DNA from: Thauera sp. GDN1
GTDB lineage: Bacteria; Pseudomonadota; Gammaproteobacteria; Burkholderiales; Rhodocyclaceae
DNA length: 64,000 bases
Direction: 5' to 3'
Assembly: GCF_029223545.1 (NCBI RefSeq)
Contig: NZ_CP097870.1
Location: 1,116,001 to 1,180,000 of the forward strand
Shown: in pieces, positions 17,019-37,236 of the stretch
Layout: each line of letters opens with the position of its first letter
Position numbering within the stretch: the stretch's first letter is position 1
Position numbers and translations under genes: made by a program
The notes under the pieces: generated by a model
The model's input: only the letters and a program-made list of their open reading frames with translations
Databases searched by the model: none
What the model was told of the DNA's origin: nothing

Positions 17019-20000
17019 ATGGCACAAGCGATTGCGGTAGTCGTGGCGGTCACGGGCAGGGCGTTCGCACGCGACGCGGAGGGTAACCTGCGTGCGCTTA
17101 AGGCGGGTGACACGCTGAAGGAAGGCGAAGTGGTCATCACCATGTCCGGCGGCAGCGTCGAGCTGGCCATGTCCGACGGCGCTCCGATGACGGTGGCTGC
17201 CGACCAGACCGTGACGCTCACTGCCGATGTCTCCGAGACCACCCGCCCGGCGCGTGAGGATGCCGAGATCATCCAGGGGACCGTCGATCAGGTGATCCAG
17301 GCCCTCGAGCGTGGCGCCGACATCGAGGATCTCGAAGAGCCCGCGGCCGGTCTCAGCGGCGGTGGCGGCGGCGAAGGCAACAACTTCGTGCGCCTGCTGC
17401 GGATCACCGAAGGGGTCACGCCGCTCGAGTTCGATTACCGCCTGTTGAGCACCGAGCGTCTCGAGCCGGAAGAGCGCGGGCTGCCCGCCGAAGAGGAGGA
17501 GCCGGTCAACGCGACGGTCACGCTCAGCGACCTCATCGTGTTCGAAGGCTCCGGCACCGCGACCATCACCGCGACCGTCAGCAGCCCCGTCACTGGCAGC
17601 GACCTCGTCATCGAGCTCAGCAACGGCGCGGTCATCGTCATCCCGGTCGGCTCGACCACCGGCACCTCGACGCCCTTCCCGATCCAGGGCGAAGACCCCT
17701 ACATCGATCCCGAGACCATCACCATCGAGGTCGTCGACACCGGCGGCAGCGACTTCGGCACCGTGACCCCGACCGGCCCGGCCACGGTCGAGGTGCGCGA
17801 CACCATCGACAGCACCAACACCTCGCTCACGGTCACGCTCGAAGCGGCCCCGTCGCTCACCGAGGACGGCACCACGCTCACCTACGTCGTCACGCTCGAC
17901 GCGCCGGTGCGCCCGGGCGACGACCCGGTCAGGGTCAGCTTCATCGACCTGGCGGGCAACCCGCAGACGATCACCATCACCGAAGGCACGAGCGCCTTCC
18001 TCGACGTGCTGATTCCGGAAGCGCTGTTCGAGGATGTGTACAAAGAAGCGGATGCGATGCTGCCGGTCGCGACCAACGTCGTGCTGACGGGCGGGTCGGA
18101 CTTCGAGGCGCTCGATCCGCCTGTGGTCGGGAGTGTGACGCTGGTCGATACGATCGATACGACCACGGTCACGCTGGGCGACGTCACGGTCGCCGAGGGC
18201 AGCGGCACGGCGACGATCACGGCGACGGTGAGCAACCCGGTGACCGGCAACGCGCTGGTGATCACGCTGTCGAACGGGGCCACGGTGACGATCCCGGTGG
18301 GCCAGAGTTCGGCGGTCTCGACGCCGTTCGCGGTGCAGGGCGACGATCCGTACCTGGATGCCGAGAGCTACGCGGTCAGCATCACCGGCGCGGCGGGCGG
18401 CAACTACGAGGCGCTCGACACCAGCGACACGGCCACGGTCACGATCGACGACACGACGAACACGACCACGGTGACGCTGGGCGACGTCGCGGTCGCCGAG
18501 GGCAGCGGCACGGCCACGATCACGGCGACGGTGAGCAACCCGGTGACCGGCAGCGCGCTGGTGATCACGCTGTCGAACGGGGCCATGGTGACGATCCCGG
18601 TGGGCCAGAGTTCGGCGGTCTCGACGCCGTTCGCGGTGCAGGGCGACGATCCGTACCTGGATGCCGAGAGCTACGCGGTCAGCATCACCGGCGCGGCGGG
18701 CGGCAACTACGAGGCGCTCGACACCAGCGACACGGCCACGGTCACGATCGACGACACGACGAACACGATCACGGTGACGCTGGGCGACGTCGCGGTCGCC
18801 GAGGGCAGTGGCACGGCCACGATCACGGCGACGGTGAGCAACCCGGTGACCGGCAGCGCGCTGGTGATCACGCTGTCGAACGGGGCCACGGTGACGATTC
18901 CGGTGGGCGAGAGTTCGGCGGCCTCGACGCCGTTCGCGGTGCAGGGCGACGATCCCTATGTCGACCCCGAAAGCTACACGGTCAGCATCGCCGGCACGGC
19001 GGGCGGCAACTACGAGGCGCTCGACACCAGCGACACGGCCACGGTCACCATCGACGACACGGAAGACACGACTATCGTCATGCTCGACGCATCGAGCGAG
19101 GTGCCCGAACTGGGTGGAACGATCACTTACACCGCCTCTGTGGCCGACGCTCCGCTCGGTACTCCGTTGACCATCAGTTTGTCGAACGGTGCCGAGATCG
19201 TGATCCCGGTTGGCAGCCTTTCTGGCTCGACCACTGTCCCGATGACCAAAGCTGACCTCGAGGCGATCTCGGGGGACAGCGTGACGGTGACCATCACCGA
19301 CGCCACCGGTGGCACGTATGAGGCGCTCGATACCTCCGACGATGCGGTGACCCGCATAGACCGGGTCGTCGAGGTCGAGGGCGATTCGCTCGCCTTGAAC
19401 GAGGCGGATCTCGTCGGTGCAGGTGGCACCCTCACACCGGTCACGGCACAGGGCAGCTTCGTCATCACCGCGCCCGATGGCGTCGGGTCGCTGACGATCC
19501 AGAACCTGACGATCGGTGACATGCAGGTGATCGTCGACGGCGTCTTCACGCCGACCTCGGCGACAACTCCGCTCGGCAACACCCTGGCTGTCACAGCGTT
19601 CGACCCGGCTACCGGCACCATCACTTACAGCTACGAGCTGAATGCGGCCGAGACGCATACGCAGCCGACCAACGATACCGAGCTGGTCGAGCAGTTCGGC
19701 GTAGTGGTGACGGATGGCGATCCGGTGGATCCGAACGTCGCAAGCTCCCTGCTGACAGTGACCATCACCGACGATCGCCCCGTTGTCGAGATCCAGGAGC
19801 TTGGGAGTTCGGTCAGCCTGGACGAGACGAACGCCTTCACCGGCGGTACGCCGGGCAGCTTCCCGATCACGGCGACGAGCGCCGATCCGGTGCTGTCCTT
19901 CACGTCCGACTTCGGTGCGGACGGGGCGGCGGCGAGCAACGCCACGACCTACGGCCTGTCGATCGTGGGCGACGGCGCGACGCTGCTCAAGACCGCGGTG

Positions 20001-34391: not shown

Positions 34392-35498
34392 TCAGGGAGC
34401 GCCGTCGTCCGGCGCTCCTTTTTTTTCGGCGAGCCGGGCGCGCAGTCGCAGGCTCGTCTTGCGTGCGAGATGCGGCACCAGCATGTGCAGCGGCATGCGC
34501 AGCAGGTGGTAGCGGGCGAGCATCGCGGCCCTGGCCAGCCTCGCGCGCAGCGGCGGCGGGCCGTCCGGATCGGTGGGCAGCATCGCCAGCGGCAGCAGCC
34601 GGTCCATGAGCCGGATGGTGATGCCGGGCGGCCGAGGCAGGCCGGCCATCACCGCCTCCGGCACCGGGCAAGCCATCAAGCCGGTGGCGAAATGCAGCCC
34701 GTACCACAGCGGACGCTGCAGACCGAGCGCCTCGGCGCGGGCGAGGAGCCTGGTCCAGAAGCCGTCCTCGGCAGCCGACTCGCGCAGCAGGGCGTCGATG
34801 TCGACGAGTTCGCGAATCCGCAGCGCCAGGTCGCCGTCGTGGAAGCAGTGCACGCAGGCGTGCAGCACCTGGTCCTCGGTGGCGAGCACGCGGAAGGGCG
34901 TGCCGGGAATGGCGACACTGTGCTCGAACAGCGGCGCCGGATCGAAGGCGAGGCTGCCGGTCACCGGCGTGATCGCGTGGTGCAGGTCGACCTCGAGCGC
35001 ATGGCCGGGGTAGCGCATCGGCGGCGTCTCGTGGCTCCAGTCGCGGTAGTAGCGCTCGTCGTAGGCGGAGAGCTCCTCGGTCCGCCAGCCTGCTGCATGT
35101 AGCGCCCGTTCCATGGCGCGGAGCCTTTCTCGGGGGACCATGAGGTCCACGTCCGAGACGAAGCGGCCGACCGTCATCGGCCGATCCTGCAGCAGGTAGG
35201 CGCCGCCCTTCAGCACGATGACCGGATGGTCGACGGCACACAGCGGGGCGAGCTGGAACAGCTCCGCCCTCACCATCTGGCTGCGGAACGCGGCGATGCG
35301 CGATGCGGACAGGAAGTGGCGGCGCAGGACCGCGCTCAGGTCCGGATTGTTCGCGTTGGTCGCGGCCAGGCGGGCATGCAGGCCGGTCGCGCGCGCAATC
35401 CGCAGCACGCGCTCCCAGCGCCCCTCGTCGAGCGTGAGCGGGCCGCGCATGCCGCGCAGCAGGAGCTCGACGTCGGACGGTGGGGGCGCGGCGCTCAC
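34392..35498 (-). CDS. Family-5-type nucleotidyltransferase of the HprK/PqqD cassette
   Basis: This 368-residue protein has the fold signature of the uncharacterised nucleotidyltransferase family NTP_transf_5. The motif VIVLKGGAYLLQDRP is followed by SDVDLMVPRERL, with the DxD metal site at Asp116 and Asp118. Such proteins are thought to transfer nucleotidyl groups, but substrates are unproven. The start is GTG at 35498, overlapping the kinase-like gene's stop (GTGA); the longer frame from 35687 is only an antisense reading of that neighbour. It is the last gene of the four-gene set. I infer that it modifies, with the kinase-like protein, a peptide or protein substrate. Confidence 0.78.
   Translation of the reverse strand: MSAAPPPSDVELLLRGMRGPLTLDEGRWERVLRIARATGLHARLAATNANNPDLSAVLRRHFLSASRIAAFRSQMVRAELFQLAPLCAVDHPVIVLKGGAYLLQDRPMTVGRFVSDVDLMVPRERLRAMERALHAAGWRTEELSAYDERYYRDWSHETPPMRYPGHALEVDLHHAITPVTGSLAFDPAPLFEHSVAIPGTPFRVLATEDQVLHACVHCFHDGDLALRIRELVDIDALLRESAAEDGFWTRLLARAEALGLQRPLWYGLHFATGLMACPVPEAVMAGLPRPPGITIRLMDRLLPLAMLPTDPDGPPPLRARLARAAMLARYHLLRMPLHMLVPHLARKTSLRLRARLAEKKGAPDDGAP
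34396..34426 (+). terminator. Rho-independent terminator of grxD, inside the convergent coding sequence
   Basis: GGAGCGCCG and CGGCGCTCC form a nine-base stem with five-base loop, followed by eight T residues. The element lies inside the last codons of the opposite-strand gene (34392-35498), whose Glu-Lys-Lys-Gly and following residues it encodes. Confidence 0.9.
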
Positions 35499-36364
35499 GA
35501 CGTTTCCCGGAACAGCTTGTCGATGCAGGCGATCGCCTCGTCCAGATCGCCATAGCTCAACTCGTAGGCCTGGACCGCCCGCGTCAGCGCGACCACGGCG
35601 TCGAAGCCGGCGGGGCCGAGCGCGCGATAGTTGAAGCTGTTCAGGCCCAGCCGCATCGCGGCCGCGGCCTTGTCGAGCGGCGTGCACTGCAGGGGCGCAC
35701 CGGCGCGGAAGGCGGGGAAGACGACGAGCCGGGGCCGCGCCCGGCAGTGGCGGTCGGCGAAACTCGCCCGGTCCGGGACGAAGTGGGCCACGTCGCCCTT
35801 GCGGGTCCGCGGGTAAAGCGGGCCCAGCACCGCACCCGGGCGCTGGCCGATGATCTCGATCGAGCGGTTCTTCAGCGGCGCCGGCCTGACCATCGGCAGC
35901 AGCTCGCCCGAGTCCATGTCGACGATGCCGAACTCGTCCGACAGGAAGCGCCAGCCGGCCAGGCTCAGCGCACAGCTCAGCGTCGTCTTGCCCGAGCCCG
36001 GTGCCGCCGGCAGGATCAGCGCCCGATCCTCACGCGCGACCACGCCGGCATGCAGTAGCAGGTAGGCGTTGAGGCGCTGGCTCAGCAGGTAGTTGCTGCC
36101 CCATTCGAACAGCGGCAGGGCGCTGTGGAGGGGGTAGGGCTCGAAGACACGCACGCTTTCCGACCAGAAGCCCGCCTGCTGGCCGCGCAGGCGCAGGCGG
36201 GACCCCGGCAGCACGGACACGCGGATGTCGGCGAAGCGGTCGTCGGGCGTCGGTTCGTGGTAGGGATAGACGCGATCCAGGTCGGCATGAAGGCTTGCGA
36301 TCGGCGAGGCGACGCCCAGGCGTGCGGCGCCTACGTCCAGGATGCGGTAGACGTTGTGGGTCAT
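35495..36364 (-). CDS. HPr-kinase-related protein (HprK-related kinase A type)
   Basis: This 289-residue protein resembles the C-terminal kinase domain of HPr kinase/phosphorylase. It has a conserved His105-Ala-Gly segment (LLHAGVVA), Walker A PAAPGSGKTT (about 119-128), and LSDEFGIVD (around 142-149), which matches the HprK Asp-rich loop. It lacks the HprK N-terminal domain. No HPr or PTS genes are nearby, so sugar-regulated HPr phosphorylation is unlikely. Related kinases phosphorylate Ser in lasso peptides, and families of this type occur near PqqD-like proteins; I recall one named HprK-related kinase A. The ATG at 36364 overlaps the PqqD-like gene's stop (ATGA). Confidence 0.82.
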   Translation of the reverse strand: MTHNVYRILDVGAARLGVASPIASLHADLDRVYPYHEPTPDDRFADIRVSVLPGSRLRLRGQQAGFWSESVRVFEPYPLHSALPLFEWGSNYLLSQRLNAYLLLHAGVVAREDRALILPAAPGSGKTTLSCALSLAGWRFLSDEFGIVDMDSGELLPMVRPAPLKNRSIEIIGQRPGAVLGPLYPRTRKGDVAHFVPDRASFADRHCRARPRLVVFPAFRAGAPLQCTPLDKAAAAMRLGLNSFNYRALGPAGFDAVVALTRAVQAYELSYGDLDEAIACIDKLFRETS

Positions 36365-36645
36365 CGAGTTGCCGAGATCCCGTTTCGCTCGTGCAGGTGC
36401 AGGAGCGAGTGTGCCAGGAAGGCCAGGCCCGGCTGCCAGCCGCCGGCTTCCTCGATCTCGGCGAGGAAGGCGTCGAAGCGGCCGTTCTCGATGGCCAGCG
36501 CAGCTTCACGCAGCACCAGTTCGGCGCCCGGGGTGAGCAGGTGGGTCTGCCACGACACCGGATCCAGAAAAAGAAACTGCCCGTCCAGCGACGGGCAGTA
36601 GGCATTCAGCCACTCGAGGGGCGTACGCGGATCGGGGATGCGCAC
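36361..36645 (-). CDS. PqqD-like peptide-recognition protein
   Basis: This 94-residue protein matches the size and winged-helix look of PqqD-like chaperones (RiPP recognition element). The pattern LDGQFLFLDPVSWQTHLLTP is followed by a helix (AELVLREAALAIENGRFDAFL), and a His-rich C-terminal helix (LAHSLLHLHERNG). In known RiPP pathways such domains bind a leader peptide and present it to the modifying enzymes. The likely start is GTG at 36645, six bases after the upstream Tat-protein stop, with GGGGG ahead of it. It lies between candidate substrate and kinase-like gene. Confidence 0.7.
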   Translation of the reverse strand: MRIPDPRTPLEWLNAYCPSLDGQFLFLDPVSWQTHLLTPGAELVLREAALAIENGRFDAFLAEIEEAGGWQPGLAFLAHSLLHLHERNGISATR

Positions 36646-36651
36646 CGGCGA

Positions 36652-37236
36652 TCAGCCCCCGTAGATCGTTCCCGATGGCACTGCGGCGTTCAGCGAGGTA
36701 ACGCAGGATTCTGCCGCCGGCTGCGGGAGTTGGGCGGCCGTGGCTGGAGGGGCGCCCGCCATTCCCGCCACGTAGGTGTCCGGTGCGGTGGCCACGTAGC
36801 CGTTTCCGAACTGGTCGAAGAGCACCAGCAGCCATCCCGGACGCCCGTTGCCGTTCCCTACAAGGCTCACCAGATCGTTGCGCTTGATCGGGTCGCTGCT
36901 GGCCCTGGCCCAGTTGCTTCCATTCGGGACGTTGACCTGATAGACCGTGCCGCTGGGGTATTCAAAACCACTGAACTGGTTGTTCTGCGCGTCCTTGTAG
37001 CTCCGGATCGTGACCGGAACCCATGCCCACCTGGGGCCGCTGGCCGACGCGGACGGTTGGGCCTGCACAAGCTGGTCGCCTCCGCTCGGGGCGGTGGTCG
37101 CGCCTTTCTCAATGCAGTTGAGCGATGCTAGCGCGGAACCGCTATGCCCCATCGTCGCGACGCTGGATGCCGCAAGCGCCCCTTTCAGCACCTTCCGGCG
37201 CTTTTCGACAGCTTGGTCTTCGGGGGAGTGGGGCAT
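36652..37236 (-). CDS. Twin-arginine-signal hypothetical protein, candidate substrate of the cassette
   Basis: This 194-residue protein has a twin-arginine-type start (KRRKVLKG, Arg13-Arg14) and hydrophobic stretch (ALAASSVATMGHSGSALA), so probably exported folded by the Tat system. The mature part is Ser/Gly/Asn-rich and otherwise has no recognised domain. It has exactly two Cys after the signal, Cys41 and Cys178, which could form a disulfide or bind a cofactor. Sequence ends PSGTIYGG. I do not recognise its family. The ATG at 37236 has AAGAGG upstream, and it is the first gene of the four-gene cassette. A -10-like TATAAT on the minus strand lies at 37276-37281. The position suggests substrate, but nothing shows this directly. 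Confidence 0.65.
   Translation of the reverse strand: MPHSPEDQAVEKRRKVLKGALAASSVATMGHSGSALASLNCIEKGATTAPSGGDQLVQAQPSASASGPRWAWVPVTIRSYKDAQNNQFSGFEYPSGTVYQVNVPNGSNWARASSDPIKRNDLVSLVGNGNGRPGWLLVLFDQFGNGYVATAPDTYVAGMAGAPPATAAQLPQPAAESCVTSLNAAVPSGTIYGG

What the first reader, a model, noticed from the sequence alone, without database searches (positions are those of the whole stretch)
34392..37236. Four-gene cassette that may be an undescribed peptide- or protein-modification system
A twin-arginine-signal protein of unknown family, a PqqD-like protein, an HPr-kinase-like protein and a family-5-type nucleotidyltransferase follow in order. The last three starts overlap stops or sit six bases away. 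PqqD-like proteins bind leader peptides. HPr-kinase-like enzymes and such nucleotidyltransferases accompany lasso-peptide clusters, where the kinase modifies the peptide. Here no lasso cyclase, protease or PTS gene is present. The likely substrate is the neighbouring Tat protein, or the two enzymes may act on each other or on a small molecule. The order and motifs are seen; the joint role is inferred.
Basis: partly seen in the sequence, partly recalled or inferred. Interest (0 to 1): 0.85.

Follow-up and report, generated by a model that had tools for sequence, protein, structure and literature searches.

The report
Signal-peptide-guided protein phosphorylation and glycosylation cassette
Four neighbouring genes probably mark one exported bacterial protein with phosphate and perhaps sugar before it leaves the cell, using the protein's own export signal as the recognition tag; the gene set recurs in many bacteria, and we found no published description of it.

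Summary
In detail: a four-gene minus-strand operon encodes a twin-arginine-signal protein, a PqqD-like protein, an HprK-related kinase A (TIGR04352, 332 bits) and an NTP_transf_5 protein (PF14907, 184 bits). It is a real unit. In 86 unique loci from Proteobacteria and Planctomycetes, NTP_transf_5 lies beside the kinase in 86 and a PqqD-like gene precedes it in 85. A related RR-signal leader lies upstream in 83 (E<=0.1), with no hit elsewhere at that threshold in 906 kb. Leaders are related across clades while cores differ, down to ASPSS, as in RiPP precursors. Where the leader has a proline, a small residue sits at P+12 in 49 of 50; in one core class Ser sits at P+15 in 17 of 22. That is the register of the Bacillota LPP system, whose kinase phosphorylates that Ser. 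Best reading: an RRE-guided Tat-substrate modification system, kinase plus possible hexosyl transfer, cousin of LPP and lasso tailoring. The window's own leader lacks the proline and its PqqD-like protein is divergent. Unexpected: the window clade carries an intrinsic-terminator-like hairpin inside the PqqD-like coding sequence (17 of 19), probably an attenuator. All chemistry is inferred.

The parts
36652..37236 (-). Gene for the RR-signal (Tat-type) protein, the presumed substrate/precursor, 194 aa
   Evidence: ORF; R13, R14, S38, C41, C178 invariant in a 25-row alignment; no Pfam/NCBIfam family at E<=0.1
37126..37236 (-). Leader: twin-arginine signal peptide (residues 1-37), presumed also to be the leader recognised by the PqqD-like protein
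   Evidence: Leader HMM, cross-clade test, single strong hit in own genome; cleavage after residue 37 inferred
37123..37125 (-). Ser38 codon, first residue after the predicted ALA cleavage site; candidate phospho-acceptor
   Evidence: Invariant in 25 of 25 rows; compare Ser at P+15 in 17 of 22 proline-type leaders of the non-PGYW class; acceptor role inferred
37114..37116 (-). Cys41 codon, conserved N-terminal cysteine of the core
   Evidence: 25 of 25; at least 90% of 74 precursors
36691..36708 (-). C-terminal motif S-C-V-T-S-L (residues 177-182): Cys178 invariant, Ser177 and Ser181 in at least 90%
36361..36645 (-). PqqD-like / divergent RRE-type peptide-binding protein, 94 aa
   Evidence: TIGR04353 14.7 bits, below cut-off; related to the other PqqD-like proteins of the system (hhalign E 4.1e-6), which match TfuB1 and TbiB1
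36576..36599 (-). Hairpin of an intrinsic-terminator-like element inside the PqqD-like coding sequence (T-rich tail to about 36565); probable attenuator
35495..36364 (-). HprK-related kinase A, 289 aa; His105, Lys126, Asp143, Glu144 kept
   Evidence: TIGR04352 331.9 bits; these residues invariant in the 21 kinases aligned (of 86)
34392..35498 (-). NTP_transf_5 protein, 368 aa, KGG...DxD motif; proposed hexosyl or nucleotidyl transferase acting on the phospho-Ser
   Evidence: PF14907 184.4 bits; motif; PsmN analogy from PMC9266682 passages

Best explanation
The cassette makes a modified exported protein. Steps: (1) the RR-signal protein is made in excess; (2) the PqqD-like protein (a RiPP recognition element, RRE) binds its leader, which is the Tat signal peptide itself; (3) the HprK-related kinase phosphorylates a Ser near the future mature N-terminus (Ser38 here), possibly more than once; (4) the NTP_transf_5 enzyme adds a hexose or nucleotidyl group to that phosphate; (5) the finished protein leaves by the Tat route, which tolerates cytoplasmic modification and folding, and signal peptidase removes the leader; Cys41 and Cys178 may then form a disulfide. 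Shown: gene set, leader conservation and its near-exclusive position, catalytic motifs, cross-phylum linkage. Inferred: every chemical step, the acceptor Ser, cleavage and the export route. My split: the Tat protein is the substrate of at least the kinase 0.75; NTP_transf_5 adds sugar to the phosphate 0.5; Ser38 is the acceptor 0.4.
For: Linkage: NTP_transf_5 beside the kinase in 86 of 86 unique loci (79 same strand downstream, 7 opposite strand); PqqD-like ORF upstream in 85 of 86; RR leader upstream in 83 of 86 at E<=0.1, none elsewhere at E<=0.1 and two at E<=1 in 906,492 bp, both strands. Cross-clade test: 22 leaders of the mixed group find 16 of 19 Rhodocyclales leaders at E<=0.01; 34 class-search leaders find 18 of 19; none of three models hits elsewhere at E<=0.01. 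Related leaders, several core types. P+12 small in 49 of 50; Ser at P+15 in 17 of 22; in LPP the consensus YxxPxVLxHQxIxFETxxS puts cleavage at P+12 and the kinase-modified S3 at P+15 (PMC13381572). RRE identity of the wider set: TfuB1 7.7e-7, TbiB1 5.3e-6. Kinase residues kept in 21 aligned. PsmK/PsmN precedent for kinase then hexose (review PMC9266682). Sugar supply: the GalE cluster is near 15 of 63 loci; in 9 of the 12 of these tested an over-cut-off GalE lies by the cassette. TatC present; one strong leader hit in the genome.
Against: The window's own leader lacks the proline, as do 25 of 75 leaders, and its PqqD-like protein fails the TIGR04353 cut-off; its clade alone matches no PDB chain at E<=1 and its model no fold clearly. 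The candidate Ser is not in one place in all core types: Ser at P+15 in 0 of 24 PGYW-type leaders. A leader model trained on Rhodocyclales finds only 4 of 27 and 3 of 40 others at E<=0.01. Pfam's TAT_signal matches only 1 of 74 precursors at E<=0.01. Deleting lppN had no visible effect in the LPP study. None of the sugar-gene clusters falls beside the window cassette. No protein chemistry exists.
Confidence: 0.7

Rival explanations
1. The three enzymes act on a small molecule or on a polysaccharide building block, and the RR-signal protein is merely the periplasmic user or sensor of that product.
For: Many loci outside the window clade sit among sugar genes: at least one of five clusters (GalE, XrtA-type amidotransferase, VanZ-domain protein, glycosyltransferase, UDP-sugar dehydrogenase) in 27 of the 63 loci examined for this; families were tested on representatives only.
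Against: A PqqD/RRE protein has no role in small-molecule chemistry that I know of (recalled); the leader, not the core, is what is conserved; kinase homologues in lasso and LPP clusters modify a Ser of a precursor.
Confidence: 0.15
2. The kinase and the NTP_transf_5 protein regulate each other (phosphorylation or AMPylation switch) and only use the PqqD-like protein as scaffold.
For: HprK family enzymes are regulatory elsewhere (recalled); kinase and NTP_transf_5 genes overlap in the window.
Against: Does not explain the RR leader upstream in 83 of 86 loci or the P+12/P+15 register.
Confidence: 0.05
3. The product is only phosphorylated (a linear polyphosphorylated protein); NTP_transf_5 transfers a nucleotide or is conditional, not a sugar transferase.
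For: LPP: up to four phosphates, sited on S3, in the heterologous host, and deletion of lppN changed nothing (PMC13381572). The review of pseudomycoidin leaves open nucleotidylation first and sugar by a host enzyme.
Against: The review reports knock-outs assigning the hexoses to PsmN; an over-cut-off GalE lies next to the cassette in 9 of the 12 GalE-cluster genomes tested.
Confidence: 0.3

Closest known systems
HPr-rel-A system (NCBIfam TIGR04352 HprK_rel_A + TIGR04353 PqqD_rel_X)
   Same: Kinase is a full member (331.9 bits, cut-off 200); 57 of 74 PqqD-like proteins scanned match TIGR04353 at E<=0.01.
   Different: The window's PqqD-like protein is below cut-off (14.7 of 35 bits). No model names the RR-signal precursor: of 74 scanned, one matched Pfam TAT_signal and one weakly matched NCBIfam TIGR04260 at E<=0.01. 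No paper naming the system was found in the library searched.
LPP, linear polyphosphorylated peptides of Bacillota (PMC13381572; abstract and sections 6, 7, 12 read; passages)
   Same: Precursor with leader motif, discrete RRE, HprK-like kinase, NTP transferase, no macrocyclase; same P+12 cleavage and P+15 Ser register in one class of our leaders.
   Different: Here the leader carries a conserved twin-arginine; no SipW-like peptidase in the genome; most precursors are proteins of 140-300 aa; Proteobacteria and Planctomycetes. An ABC exporter is core to LPP; none is among the window neighbours identified. That text does not mention Tat, twin-arginine or Proteobacteria.
Phosphorylated/glycosylated lasso peptides (paeninodin PadeK, pseudomycoidin PsmK/PsmN; review PMC9266682, passages only)
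   Same: HprK-like kinase and nucleotidyltransferase acting on a precursor Ser, in clusters with an RRE-type B1 protein.
   Different: No B2 protease (PF13471) and no lasso cyclase over cut-off in the genome; the modified Ser in those lasso peptides is C-terminal.
SynChlorMet cassette (ScmC/ScmD) and HprK_rel_B family, NCBIfam names
   Same: The ScmD model matches 7 of 74 PqqD-like proteins at E<=0.01; HprK_rel_B and ScmC models weakly match the kinase.
   Different: Both are far below cut-off for the kinase (19.3 of 200; 12.1 of 125 bits). What those systems contain is recalled, not tested.

Membership tests
HPr-rel-A system (NCBIfam) | HprK_rel_A kinase at or above TIGR04352 cut-off | tested here: met
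   331.9 vs 200 bits
HPr-rel-A system (NCBIfam) | PqqD_rel_X partner at or above TIGR04353 cut-off | tested here: not met
   14.7 vs 35 bits; related to members by profile comparison
LPP RiPPs | HprK-like kinase and NTP transferase beside a discrete RRE-type gene | tested here: met
   the RRE here is divergent
LPP RiPPs | Leader motif YxxPxVL with cleavage at P+12 and Ser at P+15 | tested here: not met
   Window leader has no proline; a partial form (proline, P+12, P+15) in other clades
LPP RiPPs | SipW-like signal peptidase (TIGR02228) | tested here: not met
   No match in the whole own genome
LPP RiPPs | Kinase-dependent phosphorylation of the precursor Ser | not testable with these tools
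   Needs mass spectrometry
Lasso peptides | B2 leader protease (PF13471) | tested here: not met
   No match in own genome
Lasso peptides | Lasso cyclase (NF033535) over cut-off | tested here: not met
   Only sub-cut-off matches, best 197.5 vs 525 bits
RRE (PqqD-like winged helix) | Sequence relation to solved RREs | tested here: met
   Met for the non-Rhodocyclales set: TfuB1 7.7e-7, TbiB1 5.3e-6; the window clade matches none directly and is linked to that set by hhalign E 4.1e-6 over 52 columns
RRE (PqqD-like winged helix) | Winged-helix fold of the window protein | tested here: inconclusive
Tat substrates | Twin arginine before a hydrophobic region | tested here: met
   One Arg invariant, the other in at least 90% of 74 precursors; TatC in the genome at 228 bits
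Tat substrates | Match to Pfam TAT_signal | tested here: not met
   1 of 74 at E<=0.01, not the window

The most novel reading that the evidence does not exclude
A widespread Gram-negative route of protein glycosylation through phosphate: the Tat signal peptide is itself the RRE recognition leader; a kinase phosphorylates a Ser near the mature N-terminus and an NTP_transf_5 enzyme builds a glycosyl-phosphodiester on it, so that an exported protein (or, in Planctomycetes, a five-residue ASPSS tail) becomes a phospho-glycan carrier, perhaps an anchor or primer for exopolysaccharide. In the window clade the RRE gene's own codons form the terminator that sets precursor over enzyme dose.
Probability: 0.3. 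Interest if true: 0.88.

Novelty: new variant of a known kind. Interest (0 to 1): 0.72.

Why it matters
It would extend the RRE-guided phospho-RiPP logic, shown by experiment in Bacillota, to Proteobacteria and Planctomycetes and to whole exported proteins, with the export signal doubling as recognition leader. It gives a function hypothesis to three little-characterised families (HprK_rel_A, PqqD_rel_X, NTP_transf_5 of this type) and defines a precursor family that the Pfam and NCBIfam models used here do not name. A predicted acceptor Ser makes the question of what these kinases do directly testable by intact mass in cultivable Thauera. The terminator-like element inside a coding sequence is a second, independent oddity.

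Tried and rejected
Lasso peptide cluster: rejected, no B2 protease or cyclase over cut-off. Exosortase/PEP-CTERM membership: in Methylococcales-type loci the cassette sits by a cluster whose member in L022 is the XrtA amidotransferase (1059 bits) and by a TIGR03088 glycosyltransferase (other loci by clustering only), but not in the window. In the first clustering the amidotransferase cluster also took in a protein next to GlmU in sphingomonad loci, probably GlmS (not tested); I treat that context as housekeeping and used the stricter clustering for counts. A single universal acceptor Ser: rejected, its position differs among core types. C-terminal Ser as acceptor (lasso-like): kept as a possibility only, from the SC..S motif. 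Fold of the Tat protein: model pLDDT 55, no match with E<=0.001, nothing concluded. Fold search of the PqqD-like model: no clear RRE match by Foldseek, middling Z by VIA. Terminator in other clades: 4 of 26 and 1 of 39 in the PqqD-like region, against 0 and 1 of 26, and 2 and 0 of 39, in two kinase control windows, so not above control in the class-search set.

Rows dropped before counts: L086, exact duplicate of L035. Precursor alignment A1 holds 74 of 87 rows: left out are L004, L021, L029, L033, L034, L037, L051, L053, L058, L059, L075, L079, L086. The leader model was built from 75 distinct of 77 leaders. PqqD-like alignment A2 holds 74 of the 90 hits; others had long mispredicted starts, were below-cut-off loci or the duplicate. 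A6 has 18 and A7 36 of them. Kinase alignment A4 holds 21 of 86. The hairpin alignment A8 holds 18 of 19 (L008 left out, same letters as L007).
Full report
What is there. The minus strand of the window carries, in order, an RR-signal protein (37236-36652, 194 aa), a PqqD-like protein (36645-36361, 94 aa, six bases after the first stop), an HprK-related kinase A (36364-35495, 289 aa, ATGA overlap) and an NTP_transf_5 protein (35498-34392, 368 aa, GTGA overlap). NCBIfam names the kinase at 331.9 bits (cut-off 200) and only brushes the PqqD-like protein (TIGR04353, 14.7 bits, cut-off 35). Pfam gives PF14907 at 184.4 bits for the last protein and nothing for the RR-signal and PqqD-like proteins at E<=0.1. 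Neighbours are ordinary: fructosamine kinase and argininosuccinate lyase upstream on the same strand, a Grx4 glutaredoxin, PrmC and a release factor on the other.

Is it a unit. A scan of one genome per species returned 45 loci with a relative of the kinase; it seeks exact peptide words of the window kinase, so it favours near relatives. A TIGR04352 search of 370 genomes drawn from the window's class found it above cut-off in 42; loci or regions of these were read. Kinases were re-found with a model built from the first set. After removing one exact duplicate (L086 = L035) there are 86 unique strong loci including the window. NTP_transf_5 is beside the kinase in 86 of 86: downstream on the same strand in 79, on the opposite strand in 7 (adjacency of those seven). 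In five Planctomycetes-type loci (L041-L045) its score is low, 50-67 bits. One of these, L044, is titled Alphaproteobacteria in its record; I group it with the others by gene content. A PqqD-like ORF precedes the kinase in 85 of 86 by an iterated profile, which is partly circular; the miss, L087, has a short similar ORF by eye. Five weaker kinases (below the family cut-off, L088-L092) served as a contrast: none has the leader by the full model, though one reaches E<=1 with one sub-model and L091 has an RR-signal ORF of its own.

The substrate candidate. Upstream of the PqqD-like gene lies an RR-signal protein whose leader is related across clades. A leader profile hits upstream of the kinase in 83 of 86 loci at E<=0.1 (82 at 0.01, 79 at 0.001), with no hit elsewhere at E<=0.1 and two at E<=1 in 906,492 bases on both strands. 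Misses: L029 and L079 are cut by contig ends; L059 has an RR-signal ORF that the profile does not reach. Most of these leaders built the profile, so it was also trained on one group and tested on the others: trained on 22 leaders of the mixed group (L020-L046) it finds 16 of 19 Rhodocyclales-type and 15 of 40 class-search leaders at E<=0.01 (19 and 26 at E<=1); trained on 34 class-search leaders, 18 of 19 and 16 of 27; trained on 19 Rhodocyclales-type leaders only 4 of 27 and 3 of 40 (12 and 11 at E<=1). None of the three hits elsewhere at E<=0.01; the class-search model has four such hits at E<=1. In the window's own genome the leader occurs once (64.5 bits; next 13.4), and TatC is present.

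Leader and core. Across 74 precursors one Arg is invariant, the other Arg and a Cys are at least 90% conserved, mean column identity 11%. Scanned one by one at E<=0.01, one member matches Pfam TAT_signal and one weakly matches NCBIfam TIGR04260; the window protein matches nothing. Sorted by crude motif rules the cores fall into a class with Ser before Cys and a C-terminal SC..S (40 rows), a class with C[TS].S..SGN.S..PGYW (18 rows, and relatives among 18 unsorted rows), and very short tails: five Planctomycetes-type precursors all end ALAASPSS. The rules mis-sorted one of those five (L045) into the first class. In the window clade (25 rows) R13, R14, L17, K18, S38, C41, C178 and the final Gly are among the invariant columns while the middle varies.

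Register. Of 75 distinct leaders 50 have a proline 8-17 residues after the arginines; 12 residues later there is Ala, Gly or Ser in 49 of 50, the place of a signal-peptidase -1 residue. With L021 added, 51 leaders split into 22 outside the PGYW class and the ASPSS type, where Ser is at P+15 in 17; 24 PGYW-type, where it is in none; and 5 ASPSS. The LPP study gives the precursor consensus YxxPxVLxHQxIxFETxxS, cleavage after that Thr, and kinase-dependent multiple phosphorylation of S3, abolished by S3A (PMC13381572, sections 6 and 7). Counting from the proline, cleavage there is also at +12 and S3 at +15. The window clade lacks the proline and has Ser at +1 (ALA|SLNC), so the register reaches the window by homology, not by identity.

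The enzymes. In the 21 kinases aligned His105, P-loop Lys126, Asp143 and Glu144 are invariant; lasso kinases need a His-Lys-Asp-Asp set (review), so the last acid differs. The kinase profile finds HPr kinase structures only weakly (0.015), behind a fructokinase P-loop (0.0055). NTP_transf_5 keeps KG...DxD: a strict pattern matched 70 of 92 rows (all loci, duplicate and weak ones included), and most printed exceptions show the same elements with other spacing or neighbours. For pseudomycoidin, PsmK phosphorylates and PsmN installs one or two hexoses on the phospho-Ser, with a nucleotidyl intermediate not excluded (review passages; the original was not held). In LPP deletion of lppN had no visible effect.

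Context. Wider context was clustered for 63 of the 86 loci (L020-L046, 35 regions from the class search, and the window; some are short). Of these, 27 have at least one of five sugar-related clusters: GalE, XrtA-type amidotransferase, VanZ-domain protein, glycosyltransferase, UDP-sugar dehydrogenase. Families were checked on one or two representatives each. The GalE cluster is near 15 of 63. A trypsin-like protease cluster is near 18 of 63 loci (Trypsin_2 in the three representatives scanned). None of these clusters is beside the window cassette.

An unexpected part. A terminator scan found a hairpin with a T-rich tail inside the PqqD-like coding sequence, 36599-36576. In the window clade 17 of 19 loci have it; L005 and L009 do not score. 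Thirteen of 19 spell Phe-Leu-Phe as TTT CTT TTT, where kinase genes of the same loci use TTT for 46 of 256 Phe and CTT for 37 of 703 Leu codons. Resampling synonymous codons reached the observed score in at most 2 of 2000 draws in each of the 17. Two equal-sized windows of the kinase gene had 0 of 19 each. Of 9 stem pairs 92.8% of cells pair and 3 pairs show a change on both sides, against 0.5 in shuffles (2 of 500 reach it); a structure slid by one column also has 3 such pairs but only 40.5% paired cells. These sequences are related, so the support is moderate. The element occurs once in the own genome with up to 3 mismatches. It probably lowers expression of the RRE and enzymes relative to the precursor, perhaps relieved by translation of the RRE gene; that is inference. 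Part of the clade-specific CPSLDGQFLFL motif may thus be kept for RNA reasons.

Novelty. Searches for the system's names found no paper; RiPP recognition element together with Tat signal found none; further searches (listings seen) gave the LPP paper and lasso reviews as nearest. The held library lacks most subscription papers and holds no bioRxiv preprints. The families are named in NCBIfam, so I rate it a new variant of a known kind: RRE-guided phospho-modification, with a Tat-type leader and protein-sized cores.

Limits. No modification has been observed. The acceptor, the sugar, the export route and cleavage are predictions, strongest for proline-type loci and weaker for the window. Counts depend on draft genomes and on my ORF choices.

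Noticed in passing
window 36565-36599 (-): Intrinsic-terminator-like hairpin and T-rich tail embedded in the PqqD-like coding sequence, found in 17 of 19 clade members with unusual codons.
   Followed up: yes
window 18159-19061: Three tandem copies of a 303-base unit, 96% matches; a multiple of three, so perhaps a repeat protein such as an adhesin (guess).
   Followed up: no
L041-L045: Planctomycetes-type precursors of 83-102 aa all end in ALAASPSS, leaving a five-residue core if cleaved. Nearby: a cluster whose L044 member is SpoIID/LytB and a small protein that looks STAS-like to me (recalled, sequences).
   Followed up: partly
L105, L109, L111, L113, L122, L124, L131 and others: Trypsin-like protease gene directly upstream of the precursor in part of the class-search loci (cluster in 18 of 63 loci; Trypsin_2 in three representatives); a candidate processing enzyme.
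   Followed up: partly
L091: Distant kinase (99 bits by my own model) with an RR-signal protein of 106 aa ending QQHGNPVPSTASST upstream.
   Followed up: no
L003-L019, between argH and the cassette: In 14 of the 18 window-clade relatives (L002-L019) a cluster of about 430-aa proteins lies near the cassette; its L012 member gives sub-cut-off matches to Ser/Thr kinase and cyclic-nucleotide-binding models. The window, L002 and L018 have fructosamine kinase there instead.
   Followed up: no
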